From a virus: DNA of 64,000 nucleotides. Of the stretch, positions 1-23,704 are shown piece after piece. A program made the position numbers and the translations under genes. Every line of letters begins with the position of its first letter. Within the stretch, counting starts at the first letter, position 1. The stretch covers positions 1 through 64,000 of IMG/VR virus record IMGVR_UViG_3300020215_000053, one strand, 5' to 3'. The notes under the pieces were generated by a model. It worked only from the letters and a program-made list of their open reading frames with translations. It searched no databases and was not told the origin of the DNA.

Positions 1-192
1 TAGCCGTCGCCGTTGCCGTCGCCGTTGCCGTCGCCGTAGCCGTTGCCGTCGCCGTAGCCGTTGCCGTTGCCGTCGCCGTTGCCGTTGCCGTTGCCGTCGC
101 CGTAGCCGTTGCCGTAGCCGTAGCCGTAGCCGTAGCCGTAGCCGTCGCCGTCGCCGTTGCCGTTGCCGTAGCCTTTGCCGTTGCCGTAGCCG
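1..192. repeat. Hexanucleotide tandem repeat GCCGTN
   Basis: About 32 consecutive units of GCCGTC, GCCGTT or GCCGTA run from the window edge to about 192, with one GCCTTT variant near 171-176. The unit is a multiple of three, so copy-number change lengthens or shortens the encoded Gly-X tail without frameshift. The repeat touches the window edge, so its full size is unknown. Confidence 0.95.
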
Positions 193-347
193 CCTACGGC
201 GGCGGCCTGGATGTACTCGTTGTCTGAGTAGTCAGAGGCGTTCCCGGCAATGACGCCGTGCTCCTCAACCCACTTCTTCACGCCGTCGATACAGGCGCCA
301 GCGTCCAAGACGTCAGCGACGGTGACTCGCTCCTTGTACTCGAACAT
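1..347 (-). CDS. Gly-X repeat protein, C-terminally truncated by window edge
   Basis: The start is ATG at 345-347 with a GGAGG site inside the 3' end of the preceding gene, whose TAA abuts this ATG, so the pair is probably translationally coupled. About 50 residues of ordinary sequence (MFEYKERVTVADVLDAGACI at the start) are followed by at least 60 residues of Gly alternating with Tyr, Asn, Asp and one Lys. The stop codon lies beyond base 1. I know of comparable GYGDGN-type tails in planctomycete genomes from memory, but no function is assigned. The repeat is likely disordered or extended and its length may vary. Confidence 0.75.
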   Translation of the reverse strand, partial: MFEYKERVTVADVLDAGACIDGVKKWVEEHGVIAGNASDYSDNEYIQAAAVGGYGNGKGYGNGNGDGDGYGYGYGYGYGNGYGDGNGNGNGDGNGNGYGDGNGYGDGNGDGNGDG

Positions 348-4113: not shown

Positions 4114-4392
4114 TCACCCTCGATCGATCTCCAGTCCGACCCGGGCCGCGAAGTAGAGCCGCGCCAGCCCGTCGTCATCCGCAGCCAGGCCGAGTTTCCT
4201 CTTGATCCCGGAGCGGAACGAGTTGACGGTTCTGGCCGAGATCCCGAGACGCCTGGCGATCTCCCGGGGAGTATACCCCATTGCGATGTGGGCGAGGATG
4301 TCCCCCTCGCGCGGCGAAAGGCCCTGGACCCGCGCGATCGTGTCGTGCAGGTCCAGGGCGAATAGTTCGGTGGCTCGCTGGATGGTCAGCAC
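4114..4392 (-). CDS. LuxR/GerE-type HTH protein (92 aa)
   Basis: The start is GTG at 4390-4392, 10 bases after GGAGG and overlapping the stop of the upstream gene by 5 bases. A stand-alone GerE helix-turn-helix covers residues about 24-70: LSPREGDILAHIAMGYTPRE is the characteristic first half and IARRLGISARTVNSFRSGIK the recognition half. No sensor or receiver domain is attached. A response-regulator receiver domain is encoded separately at 18226. It is likely a transcription factor; the operators at 4046-4108 lie directly downstream. Confidence 0.85.
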   Translation of the reverse strand: MLTIQRATELFALDLHDTIARVQGLSPREGDILAHIAMGYTPREIARRLGISARTVNSFRSGIKRKLGLAADDDGLARLYFAARVGLEIDRG

Positions 4393-8034: not shown

Positions 8035-9255
8035 TTACGCCATAGCCAGCTTGTAGGCTACCTGCTTCATCTGGTCGCCGGTTCCAGCGATCGCGCTCTC
8101 GAATCGCCGCGTACGGCGCTCGTCCAGGTCCTTCGCCTGGCGGCCAAGCGTGTTATGATCTGCGTGGTCGGTGATCGCGTTAAACGCCTTCCAGGCCGTG
8201 CCATCTTCGGCGATCTGCTCGCGGTGATAGCGGTCGATGATGTCAGCCAGGGCGGCGCGGTGGGCTGCTTCCTTGCGGGCCAGCGCCTTTTCGGCTTCCT
8301 CCTTGGCTCGCAGGTCGTGCGCGGCCGCCAGTTCGCGTACCAGCTCGCGAGACTCCTCGATGCGCATGATCTCGTCCAGGACATTGCGGGCGTAGGGGCG
8401 GATCTCCAGGCGCTTGCTTGCCATATGGGCGGCCGCAAGGGCAAACGCCTCGTGCGCCTTGGCCGTGTTGGCAAGCGCCCTTTCGGCATTGGCAAGCTTC
8501 TGTCGCACTGATCCGGTATGCCTGATGCTGATGCCCTTCACGCGATCGCTGATCGACGCGGTAAAAGTGTTGTTGCAGACAACGCGCACCGATGTCGGAT
8601 AGCAGTAGAGCGCGCCGGACCCATCGTGCGCCATGGTCACCAGTGCGTATGCCTCGTTCCGGTCCTGCTTGCCGAAAACGAAGCATTGCTTGGGGAGCTG
8701 GGCCAACATCCAGACTTTGCGGCCGCCGTCCAGGGCCCCCGCGGTTTCATACTTCGCCCCGAAGCTTGAAAGCGCCCCGTCCAGGAGGCCGAAACCGTCC
8801 TTATTCTGGATCGGCGCATATCGGCTGCCAACCGCGCCAAGAAAAGCGCCCGTGTCCTGCCTGACGATTCCCCAAGCGTCATCCGCAATGCGAGTCTCCC
8901 CGTTGTACGTGTAGGTGAGCTGCTGCTTCACAACCTGCCAGTCCAGGGAAGCCAGGCGGATTGCATCCGCGCTCGAAACCGCTTCGCGCACGAGTACGCC
9001 GAGCCCGTGCCATGGCAGCGTGCCGGCGGCCATGATCGCCACTCGGCCAGTGCTGTTGTCCAGCGCGTGGCAGGAGTTGTAGTAATCGTGGTTCTCGCTC
9101 ACGATCTCCGGCCCGGCGCCGTTGCCAATTTCGGTAGCTTCGAGCATGGCCCGCAATTCGGCGCGGCGCTTTTCGGCGTGATCCCCCTTCGTCGATCGCA
9201 GCATTTCCAGCTCTTTTCCGAGTTGAGAAAACAGGCTAGCCCATTGCTGGCCCAT
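8035..9255 (-). CDS. DUF932 family protein (406 aa)
   Basis: I place the start at ATG 9253-9255 with GGGGCG upstream; a TTG five codons earlier is the alternative. After about 70 residues of leader sequence, the DUF932 domain begins at MAAGTLPWHGLGVLV. It includes GVVR-like NGETRIADDAWGIVRQDTG, a GGRKVWMLAQLPK segment and the family signature YPTSVRVVCNNT. The C-terminus is a long charged helix (RAKEEAEKALARKEAAHRAA). DUF932 proteins are frequent in phages and plasmids; the role is not established, though association with recombination and DNA maintenance has been suggested. Confidence 0.88.
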   Translation of the reverse strand: MGQQWASLFSQLGKELEMLRSTKGDHAEKRRAELRAMLEATEIGNGAGPEIVSENHDYYNSCHALDNSTGRVAIMAAGTLPWHGLGVLVREAVSSADAIRLASLDWQVVKQQLTYTYNGETRIADDAWGIVRQDTGAFLGAVGSRYAPIQNKDGFGLLDGALSSFGAKYETAGALDGGRKVWMLAQLPKQCFVFGKQDRNEAYALVTMAHDGSGALYCYPTSVRVVCNNTFTASISDRVKGISIRHTGSVRQKLANAERALANTAKAHEAFALAAAHMASKRLEIRPYARNVLDEIMRIEESRELVRELAAAHDLRAKEEAEKALARKEAAHRAALADIIDRYHREQIAEDGTAWKAFNAITDHADHNTLGRQAKDLDERRTRRFESAIAGTGDQMKQVAYKLAMA

Positions 9256-16200: not shown

Positions 16201-16944
16201 ATGTCGGCCACCTGTCACCCCCGCCACATCCAGATCGACTACCGCCCTGGCACCCAGGACGAAGAAGCCTTCCGCGAAGTCATGTCCGAAAACTGCTACC
16301 GCCTCCCTTCGCGGCTCCGCGCCGACGACGTGGTGGTGGACGTAGGCGCGCACATCGGCAACTTTTCCCTGGCCTGCATCCTGCGCGGTGCTGGCCGCGT
16401 CCTGGCCTTCGAGCCGGACCGGGACAACTTCCGCTATCTGACCAGCAACCTCGAGCGCTGGATCGGCGCCACCGCCCGCAACGCCGCCGTCTGGCGCAGC
16501 GACAAGATCGAACAGGTCCATTTCACCGGCTACCCGGCGCAGAACGCCTTCCTGGACGCCGCCCCCTACGCCAACGCCTGCGGCTCGTGCATGCCGCAGG
16601 TGAACGTGAGCGGGGTCAATGAGCGCCGCCCCGTGGAATCCGTGCCCCTGGACCAGATCCTGGAAGGCATCGCGGCGGACGGCAAGCGCGTGCGGCTACT
16701 CAAACTTGACTGCGAAGGAGCCGAGTTCCCCATCCTCTACACCTCCAAGCGGCTCGATCTCGTTGACGAGATTTGCGGCGAACTGCACGATTTCGGCCTG
16801 CGCGGCCTGCCGCCGATGGTGGAGGGATTCACCGACTACGACATGGACGAGATGGCCTACTACCTGGAGGGCCAGGGCTTCGACGTGGACGTGGAGCCCA
16901 ATAGCCAGAGCCGGCAAATGTTCCTGTTCTGGGCCAGGCGCTAG
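16201..16944 (+). CDS. FkbM-family SAM-dependent methyltransferase (247 aa)
   Basis: Class I methyltransferase fold. Motif I is VVVDVGAHIGNFS at residues 44-56 (SAM-binding glycine loop), followed by the acidic loop LAFEPD near 69-73, where Glu71 would hold the ribose. LLKLDCEGAE near residues 165-174 is the FkbM signature. Members usually O-methylate sugars or polyketides. A glycosyltransferase-like gene follows 28 bases later, so the two may modify virion or host glycans. Such genes are unusual between capsid and terminase. Confidence 0.85.
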   Translation: MSATCHPRHIQIDYRPGTQDEEAFREVMSENCYRLPSRLRADDVVVDVGAHIGNFSLACILRGAGRVLAFEPDRDNFRYLTSNLERWIGATARNAAVWRSDKIEQVHFTGYPAQNAFLDAAPYANACGSCMPQVNVSGVNERRPVESVPLDQILEGIAADGKRVRLLKLDCEGAEFPILYTSKRLDLVDEICGELHDFGLRGLPPMVEGFTDYDMDEMAYYLEGQGFDVDVEPNSQSRQMFLFWARR

Positions 16945-16972
16945 CCGCCACACCCTTACCCCCGAGGACACG

Positions 16973-17896
16973 ATGACCCCCGCGAAACTGAACATTCTCC
17001 TGGCCGGCTTCCCCTATGGCGGCAACGGCGCGACCAGTTCCGAGGTGCCGTGCCTGCGCCACTGGTTCGCCAAGGTGGTGGTCGCAGCCAAGAAGGACGA
17101 GCGCGTTGGCGACATCTGGGCCATGGATTTCTCGGACACGCCCATCACGATGACCCGCAACGCGGCCGTGCTCAAGGCAAGACAACTGGGGGCCGACGTG
17201 CTGGTCATGTTCGATTCGGACCAGAAGCCCGACATGCTCCTGGGCCAGGACCCGACCGCCAAGCCCTTCTTCGAGTCCAGTTTCGACTTCCTCTACGAGC
17301 GCAAGCAGCAAGGAAAGGCGACCTCGATCTGCGCCCCTTACTGCGGCGCGCCGCCCGAGCGGGTGCCGTTCTGCTTCACCTGGACCACCGACGACCCGGA
17401 CCATCCCGACGGTCACGCACGGATGCGGCTCCTGACCCGCGAGGAAGCGGCCCTGCGCATGGGCATTCACGAGGTTCCGGCTCAGCCGACCGGCCTCATC
17501 ATGTTCGACATGGACCTGTTCGAGATCACCGACCCCAAGCACGAGTTCGAGCGCATGCTTCAGGCCGGTTATCCGCGGCAGATCGCTCAGGCGGTCACCA
17601 AGCCGTGGTTCTACTACGAGTGGCCGGACATTTATGCGGCCCGCAAGGACTCGACCGAGGACGTGACGGCCACGCGCGACATGGGGCTCGCGTGCATCAA
17701 CGCCCGCGGCTACAACCCGCTCTTTTGCAACTACGACGCCTGGGCCGGGCACTGGAAGCCGGAATGCGTTGGCAAGCCCAGGCCGATCAGTGGCGATGCC
17801 GTGAACGAGAAGTACCGCACTGCGGCCCTCAAAGGCAAGCAGTCCGGCGAAAGGCTGGTGCATGTCCGTGCCAACGGACAGCTTGTGAGCGCCTAG
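16973..17896 (+). CDS. Glycosyltransferase-like protein (307 aa)
   Basis: The start is ATG at 16973 after CGAGGACACG. An N-terminal Rossmann-like part contains TMTRNAAVLKARQLGADVLV and then MFDSDQKP, a DxD motif as used by GT-A enzymes to bind the nucleotide-sugar and metal. Later segments include a Cys pair region (ICAPYCGAPPERV) and YYEWPDIYA. It pairs with the FkbM methyltransferase. Acceptor and sugar are unknown. The alternative is a non-enzymatic homologue. Confidence 0.7.
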   Translation: MTPAKLNILLAGFPYGGNGATSSEVPCLRHWFAKVVVAAKKDERVGDIWAMDFSDTPITMTRNAAVLKARQLGADVLVMFDSDQKPDMLLGQDPTAKPFFESSFDFLYERKQQGKATSICAPYCGAPPERVPFCFTWTTDDPDHPDGHARMRLLTREEAALRMGIHEVPAQPTGLIMFDMDLFEITDPKHEFERMLQAGYPRQIAQAVTKPWFYYEWPDIYAARKDSTEDVTATRDMGLACINARGYNPLFCNYDAWAGHWKPECVGKPRPISGDAVNEKYRTAALKGKQSGERLVHVRANGQLVSA

Positions 17897-17939
17897 CTCC
17901 GCCGCGCCCCGGCCAAGACCGTTTGACTGAGGGCTCCCG

Positions 17940-18257
17940 ATGTTCGCACAGGCTCCGCCAGACTGGCTCAACAACTGGGAGCGCTTCGGCTATGGCGGCA
18001 TCAGCTTCCTCATGGCGGCCACGATGTTCTGGTTCTACGGCCGCCACTGGTTTCTGCGGCAGATCAAGCTGGCGGACATCTGCATCCGGGACAAGCGGAT
18101 GTCGCGCAAGAGGCTCAGATGGGCGCACAGGCGGCTTCAAGAGGCCCTGCAAGGACTGGAAGAGGCACAGGCGGAACTGGTGGCCACCAAGGCCAAGGTG
18201 ATCGAACTCGAACTGAGGCTCAGCCATGCAGACCGTCCTGGTGATCGAGGACAGTAG
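17940..18257 (+). CDS. Membrane-anchored coiled-coil protein (105 aa)
   Basis: A single hydrophobic segment, GGISFLMAATMFWFYG (about residues 19-34), is followed by a basic region and a long coiled-coil helix (RLQEALQGLEEAQAELVATK). It overlaps the receiver-domain gene by 32 bases. The topology resembles phage i-spanins or small signalling anchors; context does not decide between them. Confidence 0.65.
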   Translation: MFAQAPPDWLNNWERFGYGGISFLMAATMFWFYGRHWFLRQIKLADICIRDKRMSRKRLRWAHRRLQEALQGLEEAQAELVATKAKVIELELRLSHADRPGDRGQ

Positions 18258-18657
18258 CGAACTGGCCAAATTGTGGCAGCAGACCCTACCCGGCTTCGGC
18301 TTGCATGTGAGGCTGGCCGGCTCGCTCAGGGAGGCATTCGTGGCGCTAGCAGCAGAGGTCCCCGACTGCATCGTCCTTGATCTGTGCCTGCCAAACGGTG
18401 CCGGGGTCAACTGCGTTAAGGCAGTGCGGGCCGTCGCGGCCGACACCCCGTTGATCGTGGTCACTGGCTCGATCGAGCCGGGGCTGCGGGAAAGATGCCT
18501 GGCGGCAGGCGCGGATGTGTACTTGGAAAAGCCGACCGGGGTCAAGGACATGGTGCGGGAGATCAAGGTGGCGATCGCGACGCGCAGCACGCTGGCCGAG
18601 TGCGGCCGGCATATCGAGTCGGCCCGGCGCGGGCTGGCCTGCACGCGAGGGATGTGA
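18226..18657 (+). CDS. Stand-alone response-regulator receiver domain (143 aa)
   Basis: A CheY-like fold with all switch residues: acidic pair Glu8-Asp9 (VIEDSS), phospho-acceptor Asp52 (IVLDLCLPNGAG), Thr80 (IVVTGS) and Lys102 (LEKPTG). There is no attached output domain; a short helical C-terminal extension follows. It should be phosphorylatable by a host histidine kinase. A receiver within phage late genes is unusual. Overlap with the flanking genes (32 bases upstream, TGATG downstream) indicates it is an integral part of this operon. Confidence 0.9.
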   Translation: MQTVLVIEDSSELAKLWQQTLPGFGLHVRLAGSLREAFVALAAEVPDCIVLDLCLPNGAGVNCVKAVRAVAADTPLIVVTGSIEPGLRERCLAAGADVYLEKPTGVKDMVREIKVAIATRSTLAECGRHIESARRGLACTRGM

Positions 18658-19286
18658 TGAGCGAAGAACGCCTGCATGCTCTGGAAGGCGCGTTGACGGA
18701 ACTGCGTACCCGGCTGTCCGCCGTCGAAACGCATGCCGTCGAGATGGACCACCGGATCGACGTGCTGGAGGAACCCAACCCAATCGTCGTCAAGGCCAGG
18801 GGCTGGCTCGGCTGGCTGTGGGAAAACAGGCCCGAGTGGCGAACACTCCTGCCTTACCTCATCATCGCCGCCCTGCTCCTGCGCGGCGGTCAGGGCTGCG
18901 ACATCCGCTGCGACCGGCTGCCGATCCCCGACTGGGTCAATCCGATTCCTGTCCCCAAGGGGGACCTGCGCGTCGTGGTCATCTACGAGTCGGCCGATGA
19001 GCACAAACTACCGGCCGGTCAGCGCAACATCATCATGGGCCAGAAATTCCGCGACTGGGTGACGGCCCACTGCGGCAAGTCCGATGGCAGGACGGCCGAC
19101 TTCCGCGCCTACGACAAGGACACCGACACCGCCAACGATTATCCGTGGGCGCAAGAGGCCATGAAGCGGCCGCGTGCCGAACTGCCGTGGATCGTGGTCA
19201 TCAAGGGAACCTCGATCGTTCACGAGGGCAAATTGCCCGCCGACCCGGACCAGGCGATTTCGCTCTTGTCGAAGTACGGAGCCTGA
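18657..19286 (+). CDS. Coiled-coil, membrane, thioredoxin-like protein (209 aa)
   Basis: ATG at 18657 overlaps the receiver stop. Residues 1-40 form a coiled coil (RLHALEGALTELRTRLSAVE). A membrane segment lies near 62-76 (WRTLLPYLIIAALLL), preceded by a Trp-rich stretch. The C-terminal 100 residues (LRVVVIYESADEHKLPAGQR, later LPWIVVIKGTSIVHEGKLP) have the strand order of a thioredoxin-like fold but no CxxC. I recall similar proteins in planctomycete phages. It may present a sensing or scaffolding domain outside the membrane. Confidence 0.65.
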   Translation: MSEERLHALEGALTELRTRLSAVETHAVEMDHRIDVLEEPNPIVVKARGWLGWLWENRPEWRTLLPYLIIAALLLRGGQGCDIRCDRLPIPDWVNPIPVPKGDLRVVVIYESADEHKLPAGQRNIIMGQKFRDWVTAHCGKSDGRTADFRAYDKDTDTANDYPWAQEAMKRPRAELPWIVVIKGTSIVHEGKLPADPDQAISLLSKYGA

Positions 19287-19287
19287 G

Positions 19288-20097
19288 ATGCCCGACATCA
19301 TCACCATCACCGACGACAACTATCGTGGCTTCATCGACTCGGCCGATGACATGCCGGGCGACCACAAGGGGCTCACCCCTCGCGACTTCGCCACCTTCCC
19401 GGTCGGCCACTACGCCAACGCTGGCCCGATCGATTTCCCCCTCTTCTCCGATGAGCAGATCGAGAAGGAGATCAGGAACCAGGAGGAGAACGGTTCCTCG
19501 CTCGAACATCTGCGAATGACTTACGACGGCGGCAAGCCGATCGACGCCCTGGACCAGAACGGGCAGGGCTATTGCTGGGCCTACTCGACGACTTCCTGCG
19601 TGACCCTGGCGCGGGCCAAGCAGGGCATGCCCTACGAGCCGCTGTCGGGGCACATGATCGGCTGCATCATCAAGAACTATCGCAACCAGGGCGGTTGGAA
19701 CGCGCAATCGATGCAGTTCGCGCAGGAGCATGGCGTGGCCTCGCAAAAGTTCTGGCCCGCCAAGTCGATGTCGCGCTCCAACGACACGCCCGAGATGCGC
19801 GAGGACGCCCGCAAGCGCCGCATTACCGAATGGTGGGACCTGTCGGACGATCCCGAGACGGTCAAGCGGCAGTTGGCGACCCTGCTCCTGCTCAACTGCC
19901 CGGTGGCGGTGGACTTCAACTGGTGGTTGCACTCGGTCTGTGCCATCCGGCTCATGTCGTGGCGGCCGTTCAAGATCAGGATTCTCAATTCGTGGTCCAA
20001 TAGCTGGTCGAAATTGGGCATGGGCGACCTCGAAGGGGGCCGGGCCATTCCCAACGGCGCGATCGCGCCGCGCGTCATCACCGCCAAGGCGGCCTGA
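19288..20097 (+). CDS. Papain-like (C1 family) cysteine protease (269 aa)
   Basis: The full catalytic set is visible: Gln90 (oxyanion hole) and Cys96 in DQNGQGYCWAYSTTS, His215 in WWLHSVCAIRL, and Asn234 in ILNSWSNSW. The normal GHAV motif is replaced by LHSV. There is no signal peptide, and an N-terminal ~80-residue part precedes the core, possibly a propeptide. Role could be virion maturation, entry, or host-envelope degradation. It lies between two membrane-anchored proteins. No separate endolysin is recognisable in the window, so a lysis role deserves thought. Confidence 0.82.
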   Translation: MPDIITITDDNYRGFIDSADDMPGDHKGLTPRDFATFPVGHYANAGPIDFPLFSDEQIEKEIRNQEENGSSLEHLRMTYDGGKPIDALDQNGQGYCWAYSTTSCVTLARAKQGMPYEPLSGHMIGCIIKNYRNQGGWNAQSMQFAQEHGVASQKFWPAKSMSRSNDTPEMREDARKRRITEWWDLSDDPETVKRQLATLLLLNCPVAVDFNWWLHSVCAIRLMSWRPFKIRILNSWSNSWSKLGMGDLEGGRAIPNGAIAPRVITAKAA

Positions 20098-20111
20098 AAG
20101 GAAGGTGTTCC

Positions 20112-20663
20112 ATGAAGAAGTTCATCGACAACCGGCACGTCTACATCGGTCTGGGCATCTTCGCGGCTGTGCTGGTGCTGGCCATCTCGCTCGGCGCCTT
20201 CCAGTCGAAAGCCAACCCCATCCTGCCGCCGCCTCCCGTGCCGGATCAGGTGCCTGTCATCGACGACGACAAGCGACCGGACGGCTTTCTGGAACCCAAA
20301 CCGGAACCCGTCAAGAAACAGGCGAGCAGCCCTTATTGTGATCCGTCCTGCTCCTGCGGATGCCAGGGGGGCGGGTCGTGCGTCTGCTACATGACCATGC
20401 GAGCCAGAGCGATCAAGGAGGGGGCTGGTCTGGTGGTCTGGATCGGCTGCCGGCGCGGCACAGGCTACGACGATCATTTGCACTGCGAAGTGAAGTCGCT
20501 GCCTGGCTTCGAGGGGTTCAAGGGGCATGTCATCAGCTACGTCAGGAACGGCGAGTTGTGGTTCGCCAGGGCGGTGCCGCACGCGGCCATGCAGGCCCCG
20601 AGGCAACCAGTGTTCTTCCAGCCGGGCGGTGGAGTCGTGCGCATGCGCGGACGCTCGTGCTGA
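20112..20663 (+). CDS. Membrane-anchored Cys-rich protein (183 aa)
   Basis: An N-terminal anchor (VYIGLGIFAAVLVLAISLGA) is followed by a Pro-rich linker and a cluster CDPSCSCGCQGGGSC with a further CVC. The C-terminal half (GLVVWIGCRRGTGYDDHLHC, then GELWFARAVPH) looks like a small beta domain. The C-CxCxC cluster is one I associate with planctomycete exported proteins. It may hold metal or disulphides outside the membrane. It follows the protease with 14 bases spacing. Confidence 0.65.
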   Translation: MKKFIDNRHVYIGLGIFAAVLVLAISLGAFQSKANPILPPPPVPDQVPVIDDDKRPDGFLEPKPEPVKKQASSPYCDPSCSCGCQGGGSCVCYMTMRARAIKEGAGLVVWIGCRRGTGYDDHLHCEVKSLPGFEGFKGHVISYVRNGELWFARAVPHAAMQAPRQPVFFQPGGGVVRMRGRSC

Positions 20664-20707
20664 TAGGTCCGATGTCGGCTCCGGTGCGGGGCCAGAGGAG
20701 ACATGCC

Positions 20708-20926
20708 ATGGAAAACGAAGTGCAAAAGGCCATGATGGCGGCGGCGGCGGTCGGCCTGAACCTTACCGAGGAGCAGGTCAGGGCGATCCTGGACCTCATC
20801 TACAGCGGCGGCGATTCGGTCGTGCTGGCCACGGCCAACCCGTTCGACAACCTGGCCTGGGCCATCGCCAAGCCGATTCTCAAGCAGTTCGAGGCCAAAC
20901 TGATCGCGATTCTGACCAAGAAGTGA
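20708..20926 (+). CDS. Small helical protein (72 aa)
   Basis: Start is ATG at 20708 after GAGGAG; an ATG at 20703 is out of frame. Helical, with NLTEEQVRAILDLIYSGGDS and a C-terminal amphipathic helix (WAIAKPILKQFEAKLIAILT). Unknown function; it lies within the membrane and protease cluster. Confidence 0.6.
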   Translation: MENEVQKAMMAAAAVGLNLTEEQVRAILDLIYSGGDSVVLATANPFDNLAWAIAKPILKQFEAKLIAILTKK

Positions 20927-20929
20927 TCC

Positions 20930-21040
20930 ATGGATCGCTGGATCATTCGAGCCCTGGTGCTCCTGGCTGCCCCGATCTGGGTGCCTTACATCGCCTGGCT
21001 CGTGGCCAGGGATGTTCTGGCCGAGATGAAAAAGAGGTGA
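20930..21040 (+). CDS. Single-span membrane peptide (36 aa)
   Basis: ATG at 20930 starts 3 bases after the preceding stop. Nearly the whole chain is one hydrophobic helix, RALVLLAAPIWVPYIAWLVA, ending in a basic tail MKKR. Phage peptides of this kind are often accessory lysis or membrane-disturbing factors. Its position between two short genes with tight spacing supports it being real. Confidence 0.55.
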   Translation: MDRWIIRALVLLAAPIWVPYIAWLVARDVLAEMKKR

Positions 21041-21043
21041 CCC

Positions 21044-21415
21044 ATGTCCCGCTCTCTCGTGCTCCTGAAACTCGTCCTGCTCCTGGCCCCGGTCGTGCCC
21101 GCCGAGCGCAAGGAGGGCCAGCAGCCGGTGCCGGATCTGGTGGCGACCACTCAATTCGGTTCGATGACCCAGAGCGGCAAGGTGCTGACGATCCAGGGCA
21201 CCTACTGGTCGGCGACGGGCGAAATCCGCGAGGACGGCACGATCTACCTCTTGTGGATCACCAGGGGCGGCCGCATCGCTCCGGGCGTGTACCGGCAAGA
21301 CGGAGACACGCTTGTGGGAAATTGGGGCTGGGTCGATGACGTGGAGATCGCCTTGGACGGCGAACTGATCGGGCAAACGTGTCGCGAGACGCTGTACCTG
21401 ACGCGGCCCAAGTGA
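21044..21415 (+). CDS. Secreted small protein with signal peptide (123 aa)
   Basis: ATG at 21044, three bases after the previous stop. Signal peptide LVLLKLVLLLAPVVPAERKE with likely cleavage after PVVPA. The mature part is a predicted beta barrel: GKVLTIQGTYWSATGEIRED, TIYLLWITRGGRIAPGVYRQ and GNWGW. This pattern resembles small lipocalin-like periplasmic domains I associate with planctomycetes. Role unknown. Confidence 0.65.
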   Translation: MSRSLVLLKLVLLLAPVVPAERKEGQQPVPDLVATTQFGSMTQSGKVLTIQGTYWSATGEIREDGTIYLLWITRGGRIAPGVYRQDGDTLVGNWGWVDDVEIALDGELIGQTCRETLYLTRPK

Positions 21416-21627: not shown

Positions 21628-22038
21628 ATGCCGAAGAAGAAGTCCGCGAGCAAACGAACCGAAGAAGCCATGCTCGTGGAGACGATGCGCGGAGCCCTCC
21701 AGACCCGCAACACCGGCATGCTCCGCGAGATCATGGAAGAGACGATGAACCTGGCCGGCGGAACCAGGTGCTTCGCGAAGCTCTTGTGGGATGCGTACAC
21801 GTCCTCTGACGCCGGGCCGCTCTTGCGGTCACGCATCCTGGACGTGTGGATGAGAGCCCTGATGGTGACCCAGCCCAAGGGCGACCCCGACAACGATCTT
21901 GGCGCACTCAGCGCCGAGGACATCGACAGGGAGATGAAGGAGTTGATCGGTGCCGTTCGATCCGAGCAAAATGCCGCCGACGCCGCCCAAGAGGACCACC
22001 ACCTCGAAGGCGACGACGACAGCGCCGAAGAAGAATAG
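21628..22038 (+). CDS. Probable small terminase subunit or pre-terminase protein (136 aa)
   Basis: A basic start (PKKKSASKRTEEA) and a helical body (LQTRNTGMLREIMEETMNLA) end in an acidic tail (EDHHLEGDDDSAEEE). It overlaps the start of the terminase large subunit by 89 bases. Position and size fit TerS, the DNA-recognition subunit, but no clear HTH is visible, so this rests on context. Confidence 0.5.
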   Translation: MPKKKSASKRTEEAMLVETMRGALQTRNTGMLREIMEETMNLAGGTRCFAKLLWDAYTSSDAGPLLRSRILDVWMRALMVTQPKGDPDNDLGALSAEDIDREMKELIGAVRSEQNAADAAQEDHHLEGDDDSAEEE

Positions 22039-23704
22039 CGTGCCCGAAGCGCCGCCGCCTGGGATGCCCGAGCACAAGCTGGCCCGCTTCCGCAAGCTGC
22101 TCGTCGCTCGCGCCAAGCTGCGCATGGAAGGGCTCAAGCTGTTCGAGCCCATGCCGGTGCAGACCGCCTTCCTCTCCTCCTCCTGCCGCGAACGCATCGT
22201 CTATGGGTCCAACCGCAGTGGCAAGACAACGGTGGCCATGGTGGACCTGGCCCGCATCCTGACCGGCCAGGACCCGCTCGGCCGCCTGCCGCGCGAGAAC
22301 CTGATCTGGTATGTGGTTGGCAAGGACGGCCGCGAGCTGGCCAACGTCGTTCACAAGAAACTGTTCATGCCCGCCTGCTTCCAGATCATCCGCGACGAAC
22401 GGACCCGGCAGTGGCGAGCCTTCCGGCCTTATCAGGAGGCGGACGCCCAGAGAGAGCAGGAAGCACGCTGGGCTCCGCCCCTGATCCCGGAGCGGTTCGT
22501 CCGCGAGGTGTCGTGGGAGAACAAGAAGGAAGGGCTGCCCAAGCTGGTGAAGCTCATCAACGGCTCGGAGATCCACTTCTTCTCGGGCAACGCCCGTCCG
22601 CCACACGGCTCGTCGATTCACGGGGCGAACTTCGACGAGGAAGTGCCCGACGGCTGGTATGCCGAGATCGCGGCCCGCCTGGTGGACTACCGCGGCTACT
22701 TCACCTGGTCGGCCACGCCCGAGCAGGGCACGGACCAGCTCCTCATCCTGCACGAACGGGCGATGGGGGAGATGGAGCGGTTCATGCAGACCGGCGTCAA
22801 GCCGTCCATCGAAGAGTATTTCATGGCCATCCACGGCAACCGGCACCTGACCCGGGAGCAGGTGGAGGAGTTCGAGTCGAAGCTGACCGACGAGCAGAAG
22901 CGGGTCAAGGTCTACGGCGAGTTCCTGCAGCTTGGCGCGTCGGTGTTCCCCGAGTTCCTGCCATCGCTGCATGTCGTGGACCAGTTCCCGATCCCGCTCG
23001 ACTGGACGCGCTACCTTTACATCGACCCCGGTTATCAGGTGTGTGCGGTCCTGTTCATGGCCGTGCCCGACCCTCGCGACGAGAAGCACGCCGGTTACAG
23101 GTACGTCTACGACGAACTGTACCTCTACAACTGCAACGCGGACCTGTTCGGCCGCAAGATGCGCGAGAAGTGCGAGGGGCAGGACTTCGAGGCGTTCCTG
23201 ATCGACGAGCACGAGGCGCGCAAGCACTCGGCCGGCGACGGCAAGACTCTGGCCTCGCAGTATTCGGAGGCCCTGAGCCGCTACAAGATTCGTTCGCGCA
23301 CGACCGGCTACGGTTTCTCGCCCGGCTCGGACGATCCCAAGGCCGACGTGGCGGCCATTCGCGACTGGCTGCGTAACCGGCCCGACAAGGGGCCGATCCT
23401 GCGCGTCTTTCCCAAGGACGCCATCCCCAACTTCCACTACGAGATCACGCACTGGCGGTTCAAGAAGGACGCCAAGGGGCTGGTTACGGATGAACCCGAA
23501 TCGCGCGGGCGCGTTCACCTCATGGCGGGGCTGCGCGGGCTGGTGCAGTGCGATCCGCAATGGGTCAGGCCCAAGCACATGCCGGCACCGGACGAGATCC
23601 AGCGCATCATCGCCGAGGACCGCAGGCGCGAGAAGGCCCTGTATGGCGACGGCCCCGCGGTGTTTTGCGGCCCGCGCGGCGCGCGGGTGGGGGTGGGGGC
23701 ATGA
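21950..23704 (+). CDS. terL: Terminase large subunit (584 aa)
   Basis: DNA-packaging motor and nuclease. GTG at 21950 follows AAGGAG inside the upstream gene. Walker A is GSNRSGKTT at residues 86-94. Walker B, HGANFDEEVP, gives Asp229-Glu230 with catalytic Glu231. The coupling motif is SATPEQGTDQ near 255-263. The RNase H-type nuclease begins at LYIDPGYQVC (Asp359), with further acidic residues at FLIDEHEARKH (about 417-425). Length and order match podovirus-type TerL. It lies after, rather than before, the capsid genes, with portal following. Confidence 0.93.
   Translation: MPFDPSKMPPTPPKRTTTSKATTTAPKKNSVPEAPPPGMPEHKLARFRKLLVARAKLRMEGLKLFEPMPVQTAFLSSSCRERIVYGSNRSGKTTVAMVDLARILTGQDPLGRLPRENLIWYVVGKDGRELANVVHKKLFMPACFQIIRDERTRQWRAFRPYQEADAQREQEARWAPPLIPERFVREVSWENKKEGLPKLVKLINGSEIHFFSGNARPPHGSSIHGANFDEEVPDGWYAEIAARLVDYRGYFTWSATPEQGTDQLLILHERAMGEMERFMQTGVKPSIEEYFMAIHGNRHLTREQVEEFESKLTDEQKRVKVYGEFLQLGASVFPEFLPSLHVVDQFPIPLDWTRYLYIDPGYQVCAVLFMAVPDPRDEKHAGYRYVYDELYLYNCNADLFGRKMREKCEGQDFEAFLIDEHEARKHSAGDGKTLASQYSEALSRYKIRSRTTGYGFSPGSDDPKADVAAIRDWLRNRPDKGPILRVFPKDAIPNFHYEITHWRFKKDAKGLVTDEPESRGRVHLMAGLRGLVQCDPQWVRPKHMPAPDEIQRIIAEDRRREKALYGDGPAVFCGPRGARVGVGA

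What the first reader, a model, noticed from the sequence alone, without database searches (positions are those of the whole stretch)
16201..21415. Signalling, redox, protease and membrane module inserted between capsid and terminase
Ten tightly spaced genes sit in the late operon: FkbM methyltransferase, glycosyltransferase-like, membrane coiled-coil, phosphorylatable receiver domain, coiled-coil/membrane/thioredoxin-like, papain-like protease with complete Gln-Cys-His-Asn set, anchored Cys-rich protein, two short helical or membrane peptides and a secreted beta protein. Seen directly: motifs, membrane segments, overlaps. Known: receivers and C1 proteases are rare in phage late regions. Inference: a coordinated host-envelope system for lysis, entry or host signalling. 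No conventional endolysin is recognisable elsewhere in the window, so the protease and membrane proteins could replace one.
Basis: partly seen in the sequence, partly recalled or inferred. Interest (0 to 1): 0.85.

Follow-up and report, generated by a model that had tools for sequence, protein, structure and literature searches.

The report
Paired protease lysis cassette, planctomycete phages
The stretch holds a papain-like protease gene that is always found, in phages and prophages of Planctomycetota bacteria, right after a gene for an exported thioredoxin-fold partner and among small membrane proteins including known phage holins, so it is most likely the machinery these viruses use to break out of their host in place of a normal wall-cutting enzyme.

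Summary
The ten genes are real, but they are not one system. FkbM (g1) is not tied to the rest, and the glycosyltransferase-like gene (g2) belongs to the head-gene block of this phage family. The core is g5-g6: an exported or membrane-anchored protein with a thioredoxin-fold domain (no CXXC), then a C1A papain-like peptidase. I found the pair in 39 independent loci (IMG/VR contigs and Planctomycetota genomes): always same strand, g5 upstream, usually within 10 nt, with correlated divergence (r=0.57, 0/5000 permutations). Flanking head and tail genes are mostly unrelated. Catalytic Gln, Cys, His and Asn are invariant (32/32). Around the pair, small membrane or secreted proteins are enriched (46% vs 13%, p=3e-15). 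Two lineages carry recognised holins, seven a downstream CXXC thioredoxin (two joined to trypsin-like peptidases), three receiver domains between a membrane coiled-coil gene and g5. No lysozyme, Amidase_2 or SLT domain occurs in 29 viral records, and no murein hydrolase in three records scanned with Pfam. The module sits just before the terminase, where lambda/P22 carry lysis genes. Best reading (about 0.6): a lysis cassette of planctomycete phages in which a papain-like peptidase replaces the endolysin. Substrate and function are untested.

The parts
16201..16944 (+). g1 FkbM-family methyltransferase; adjacent, judged not part of the cassette
   Evidence: PF05050 6e-16, TIGR01444 3e-20; homologue in L019 lies elsewhere, at 17013
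16973..17896 (+). g2 glycosyltransferase-like protein; part of the head-gene block of this phage family
   Evidence: No Pfam/PHROG/NCBIfam match; homologues only in L019 and L033, after the same capsid-block genes
17940..18257 (+). g3 small membrane + coiled-coil protein (candidate holin/regulator)
   Evidence: Sequence; weak phrog_126 holin/antiholin E 0.099; same architecture (N-terminal TM + coiled coil) beside the pair in many relatives
18226..18657 (+). g4 stand-alone receiver domain, phosphorylatable Asp52
   Evidence: PF00072 1e-19; receivers in the same position in L017 and L032
18657..19286 (+). g5 coiled coil - transmembrane - extracytoplasmic thioredoxin-fold domain (residues 103-209); obligate partner of g6
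   Evidence: Alignment A5, AlphaFold2 domain pLDDT about 96, Foldseek to thioredoxins; upstream of C1 in 39/39
19288..20097 (+). g6 C1A papain-like cysteine peptidase, no export signal; proposed endolysin-equivalent
   Evidence: PF00112 5.5e-7; pLDDT 93, pTM 0.92; procathepsin/xylellain fold; catalytic residues 32/32
20112..20663 (+). g7 membrane-anchored protein with a Cys-rich CxC motif
   Evidence: Sequence; weak match to secreted Cys-rich L019:11067-11516 (E 0.02); Cys-rich secreted proteins occur downstream of C1 in L004, L017, L019, L084
20708..20926 (+). g8 short protein with a C-terminal hydrophobic/amphipathic helix
   Evidence: By eye resembles short proteins just downstream of C1 in L002, L004, L007, L019, L033, L084; no significant sequence match
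20930..21040 (+). g9 36-aa single-membrane peptide (weak gene call)
   Evidence: ORF and hydrophobicity only
21044..21415 (+). g10 small secreted beta-rich protein
   Evidence: Signal-peptide-like N-terminus; no confident family match
21628..22038 (+). g11 probable small terminase subunit (boundary gene)
   Evidence: Precedes the large terminase in window and L019; identity not proven
22040..23704 (+). Large terminase (boundary gene; a start at 21950 is also possible)
   Evidence: PF03237 9e-10, phrog_2 7e-14

Best explanation
g3-g10 form the lysis (egress) cassette of a Planctomycetota phage whose two-gene core is g5-g6. Shown: g5 and g6 are an obligate, co-diverging, co-oriented pair; g5 carries a thioredoxin-fold domain without redox cysteines behind a signal peptide or membrane anchor; g6 has an intact C1A catalytic set and no export signal; small membrane proteins, and in two relatives recognised holins, flank the pair. 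Inferred: g6 accumulates in the cytoplasm, a membrane protein of the cassette (g3, g8 or g9) opens the inner membrane at the end of infection, and g6 reaches the periplasm. There the anchored or secreted g5 domain binds and positions or activates it, and it cleaves protein or peptide components of the envelope in place of a murein hydrolase. In several lineages a secreted CXXC thioredoxin and/or a trypsin-like protease is added, consistent with a disulphide-stabilised protein target. The receiver g4 would tune the membrane step in response to a host kinase.
For: Pair conserved: 38/38 loci plus window; a reverse search with g5 alone gives C1 next door; 39/39 same strand with g5 upstream, mirror-tree r=0.57 with 0/5000 permutations; gap of 10 nt or less in 20/31. 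Most g5 relatives have signal peptides; C1 N-termini are not hydrophobic, apart from weak values in L010 and L033. Holins beside the pair: L003:5398-5757 phrog_9987 1.2e-12 and L025:7601-7987 phrog_2359 3.3e-9. Small TM/secreted genes 81/178 near vs 37/293 far, OR 5.8, p=3e-15. No Amidase_2, Phage_lysozyme or SLT in 29 viral records; M23 and CHAP only below cut-off. No murein hydrolase in Pfam scans of the window and of records G014 and G026. Hosts: the cellular hits found lie in genomes of the phylum of a Gemmataceae MAG, several in long chromosomal contigs. CXXC thioredoxins downstream in 7 lineages, joined to trypsin-like domains in 2 of them. Two BFVD phage relatives of the C1 fold are annotated as peptidoglycan-binding-like and N-acetylmuramidase.
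Against: No experiment. Planctomycetes have lysozyme-sensitive peptidoglycan (PMC4432640), so a protease alone might not lyse them. The viral records may be incomplete, and only five endolysin families were searched in all of them. g3 and g8 are not recognised holins (best E 0.099). The obligate partner is exported while the peptidase is not, which is unusual for endolysin systems. A C1 homologue without g5 exists in one planctomycete contig (L100). The window's own host is inferred from its relatives, not shown directly. The cellular search was confined to that phylum except for one pattern-limited scan of all genomes.
Confidence: 0.6

Rival explanations
1. Virion-associated entry protease: g5-g6 are packaged or tail-associated and open the outer protein layer during infection.
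For: Pair lies in the late gene region among structural genes; a protease is a plausible aid in crossing a proteinaceous layer.
Against: g5 carries signal peptides or TM anchors, which virion proteins do not need; holin neighbours; position varies from capsid side to tail side.
Confidence: 0.15
2. Lysogenic-conversion or host-takeover cargo: exported proteins remodel the host envelope or block superinfection, with the peptidase working inside the cell.
For: Secreted thioredoxins, CAP-domain, trypsin-like and lipid-desaturase proteins nearby; present in prophages; integrase in the window.
Against: Co-directional with late structural genes; tight g5-g6 coupling and membrane-gene enrichment; no defence-family match for g5/g6.
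Confidence: 0.15
3. Protease plus dedicated regulator: g5's thioredoxin-fold domain is an extracytoplasmic inhibitor/chaperone of g6, and the pair processes phage or host proteins unrelated to lysis.
For: Obligate pairing and co-divergence; protease-inhibitor operons exist (staphopain/staphostatin, from general knowledge).
Against: An exported inhibitor would not protect the cytoplasm where g6 is made; holin neighbours unexplained.
Confidence: 0.07
4. Unrelated cargo genes that happen to lie together.
For: g1, g2 and most accessory genes are not conserved together.
Against: 39/39 linkage of g5-g6 across loci with otherwise mostly unrelated phage genes.
Confidence: 0.03

Closest known systems
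Canonical phage lysis cassettes (holin-endolysin-spanin; lambda S-R-Rz, P22 13-19-15; from general knowledge)
   Same: Small cluster of membrane proteins plus an unexported hydrolase in the late region, directly before the terminase genes in the window; recognised holins in two relatives
   Different: Hydrolase is a C1A papain-like peptidase, not a murein hydrolase; obligate exported thioredoxin-fold partner; optional thioredoxin, trypsin and receiver genes
Papain-family C1A peptidases (cathepsins, xylellain)
   Same: Fold and full Gln-Cys-His-Asn set
   Different: About 15-22% identity; phage-encoded, no signal peptide, obligate g5 partner
Papain-family-like N5 domain of mycobacteriophage LysA endolysins (PMC3314691)
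   Same: Papain-superfamily cysteine peptidase in a phage lysin
   Different: There one domain of a modular endolysin, usually with amidase/muramidase and binding domains; here a stand-alone C1A protein
C1A peptidases of uncultured Caudovirales in BFVD (A0A6J5QDM8, A0A6J7XQB9)
   Same: Same fold in phage proteins, TM-score 0.64-0.70
   Different: 18% identity; their neighbours were not examined
Thioredoxins
   Same: Fold of the g5 C-terminal domain (Foldseek prob 1.0, E 7e-4)
   Different: No CXXC; membrane-anchored or secreted; no sequence relative of the domain in PDB

Membership tests
Peptidase family C1A (papain) | Papain fold | tested here: met
   pLDDT 93; Foldseek procathepsin/xylellain E from 6e-11 to 2e-9
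Peptidase family C1A (papain) | Catalytic Gln, Cys, His, Asn | tested here: met
   Q90, C96, H215, N234 invariant in 32 sequences
Peptidase family C1A (papain) | Proteolytic activity | not testable with these tools
   No assay
Phage lysis cassette | Recognised holin next to the hydrolase | tested here: inconclusive
   Yes in L003 (phrog_9987) and L025 (phrog_2359); in the window only a weak match (g3, E 0.099)
Phage lysis cassette | Murein hydrolase (endolysin) | tested here: not met
   None in window; five families without matches over cut-off in 29 viral records
Phage lysis cassette | Needed for host lysis | not testable with these tools
   Needs a genetic experiment
Thioredoxin (redox-active) | Thioredoxin fold | tested here: met
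   g5 residues 103-209
Thioredoxin (redox-active) | CXXC active site | tested here: not met
   Absent in 30/30 g5 domains
Receiver domain (response regulator) | Acidic pair, phospho-Asp, Thr/Ser, Lys | tested here: met
   E8/D9, D52, T80, K102 in g4; equivalents in L017 and L032
Receiver domain (response regulator) | Output domain or cognate kinase | tested here: not met
   No output domain in g4; no histidine kinase among the window's Pfam matches; a host kinase cannot be excluded
FkbM methyltransferase | FkbM domain over its cut-off | tested here: met
   PF05050 59.4 bits vs 22.7; TIGR01444 73 vs 37.7

The most novel reading that the evidence does not exclude
Phages of Planctomycetota leave their hosts by proteolysis, in some lineages assisted by thioredoxin, of an envelope protein layer without any murein hydrolase, and in some the membrane step is gated by a phosphorylatable receiver that reads a host two-component signal.
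Probability: 0.22. Interest if true: 0.88.

Novelty: new variant of a known kind. Interest (0 to 1): 0.66.

Why it matters
I found no description of lysis genes of planctomycete phages in the library searched. If right, this gives the phylum a marker lysis module, a lysis enzyme class other than murein hydrolases, and a handle on the old question of how far a protein layer contributes to the planctomycete cell wall. A receiver domain inside a lysis cassette would tie lysis timing to host two-component signalling.

Tried and rejected
Ten-gene module: rejected, g1/g2 do not travel with g5-g6. g5 as a redox thioredoxin: rejected, no CXXC in any domain checked. Anti-phage defence reading: PADLOC gives only weak partial matches, none for g5/g6. 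Prohead-protease reading: not favoured, partner exported and position variable. Annotated phages (INPHARED): no match for g5 or g6 by tblastn. Terminase search of IMG/VR found no close relatives. Literature searches found no planctomycete phage lysis system and no receiver in a phage lysis module. Short proteins g7-g10 could not be tied to families by sequence.
Full report
WHAT IS THERE. The window is bases 1-64000 of a 67,955-bp IMG/VR virus record with an integrase, major head protein, portal, terminase and tail genes. Between the head genes and the terminase lie ten + strand ORFs, g1-g10, at 16201-21415. Domains: g1 FkbM methyltransferase, g4 receiver with all phosphorylation residues, g6 papain-family peptidase. 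g2, g3, g5, g7, g8 and g10 match no curated family over its cut-off. g5 is coiled coil, membrane segment, then a C-terminal domain.

RELATIVES. g6 and an alignment of its relatives brought 36 IMG/VR contigs and two genome contigs: L011, a Gemmataceae MAG, and L012, whose genome falls in the same order. In every one the C-terminal domain of g5 lies upstream of the peptidase. Searching the other way, with one g5 domain only, returned known loci and one new contig, L084, which also has the peptidase immediately downstream. Planctomycetota genomes gave further loci: 2/392 genomes of the phylum, 6/102 of the order, 12/398 of the class (overlapping sets). One of them, G224, has the pair in a phage-like gene cluster inside a 3-Mb contig. 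Eight of nine further ones inspected have the pair; L100 (G484) has a lone homologue among cellular-looking genes. Taking one locus per lineage, 39/39 have g5 upstream on the same strand. In 20 of 31 dereplicated loci the gap is 10 nt or less, often an overlap. Pairwise divergences of the two proteins correlate (r=0.57, 0 of 5000 permutations), although some of that reflects common ancestry of the loci.

ANATOMY OF THE PAIR. g6 and 31 relatives keep Gln90, Cys96, His215 and Asn234 invariant. AlphaFold2 gives pLDDT 93, pTM 0.92; PDB neighbours are procathepsins and xylellain. Its N-terminus does not look like an export signal. The g5 domain is modelled at about 96 pLDDT as beta-alpha-beta-alpha-beta-beta-alpha; the best PDB matches are thioredoxins, yet none of the 30 domains checked has CXXC. 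In most relatives this domain follows a signal peptide and a Pro-rich linker. In L101/L102 the N-terminus looks like a lipoprotein signal. In the window, L018 and L105 it follows a membrane segment. So it faces outward (inference from topology).

NEIGHBOURS. Within four genes of the pair 46% of small proteins have a membrane or signal segment, against 13% further away in the same loci (OR 5.8, p=3e-15). Recognised holins occur in L003 (phrog_9987, 1.2e-12) and L025 (phrog_2359, 3.3e-9). A protein with a thioredoxin-type CXXC follows the peptidase in seven lineages. In L079 and L101 it is part of a protein with a trypsin-like domain. Receivers occur in the window, L017 and L032 (two genes), always between a membrane coiled-coil gene and g5. 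CAP-domain, PAS and lipid-desaturase proteins appear sporadically. FkbM and g2 do not follow the pair. In the closest relative, L019, scaffold, head, g2, membrane coiled-coil gene, g5, peptidase, small genes, g11, terminase and portal keep the window's order, while the FkbM homologue lies after the terminase.

ENDOLYSIN. The window's Pfam scan shows no murein hydrolase. Records G014 and G026, scanned the same way, show none. Amidase_2, Phage_lysozyme and SLT are absent from 29 viral records; M23 (one) and CHAP (two) give only sub-cut-off fragments. The records may be incomplete and other lysin families were not searched in all of them.

INTERPRETATION. A membrane gene cluster around an unexported hydrolase, recognised holins in two lineages, no conventional endolysin, a position before the terminase as in lambda and P22 (general knowledge), and a planctomycete host range together make lysis the best reading. 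The proposed mechanism: the peptidase is released by a holin-like protein, docks on the outward-facing g5 domain and cuts envelope protein or peptide, in some lineages with help from a secreted thioredoxin that opens disulphides. The docking, the substrate and the receiver's role are inference. Planctomycetes were long thought to have a proteinaceous wall but do have lysozyme-sensitive peptidoglycan (PMC4432640), so whether a peptidase suffices is open.

NOVELTY. C1A-fold proteins are known in other uncultured phages, and papain-superfamily domains occur within mycobacteriophage endolysins (PMC3314691). I found no description of a stand-alone C1A peptidase paired with an exported thioredoxin-fold protein, nor of planctomycete phage lysis. 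I rate it a new variant of a known kind (lysis cassette), pending experiment.

Noticed in passing
L079:5035-6168 (G224 prophage): Secreted trypsin-like peptidase fused to a CXXC thioredoxin (WCGPC), directly downstream of the C1 gene; a similar combination in L101:8530-9549 (WCEPC).
   Followed up: partly
L003:8460-8999, L008:11666-12205: Phage-encoded lipid desaturase (PF10520, CarF/TMEM189-like family) in the same cassette.
   Followed up: no
L005:11337-11954, L006:11689-12207, L011:6009-6608: Secreted proteins of one cluster, CAP domain (SCP/PR1-like) where tested, a few genes downstream of the pair.
   Followed up: partly
L005:12319-12804: Coiled-coil protein that looks like a PAS domain (one PAS match) near the pair; another signalling-type domain besides the receivers.
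   Followed up: no
L025:8014-9282: 422-aa protein between holin and g5 with a GDCG...GHF pattern, possibly a second papain-like fold.
   Followed up: no
L100:9476-10210 (G484): C1 homologue without g5 among cellular-type planctomycete genes; possible cellular paralogue or decayed prophage.
   Followed up: partly
window 3-347 (-): Low-complexity Gly-Asn-Tyr-Asp repeat protein (GYGNGDGNG repeats).
   Followed up: no
window 4117-4392 (-): Small stand-alone protein resembling a LuxR-type (GerE) helix-turn-helix; with the receiver g4 it could form a split response regulator.
   Followed up: no
L002:7681-8268 and 8281-8724: Tandem duplicate of the membrane coiled-coil gene upstream of the pair.
   Followed up: no
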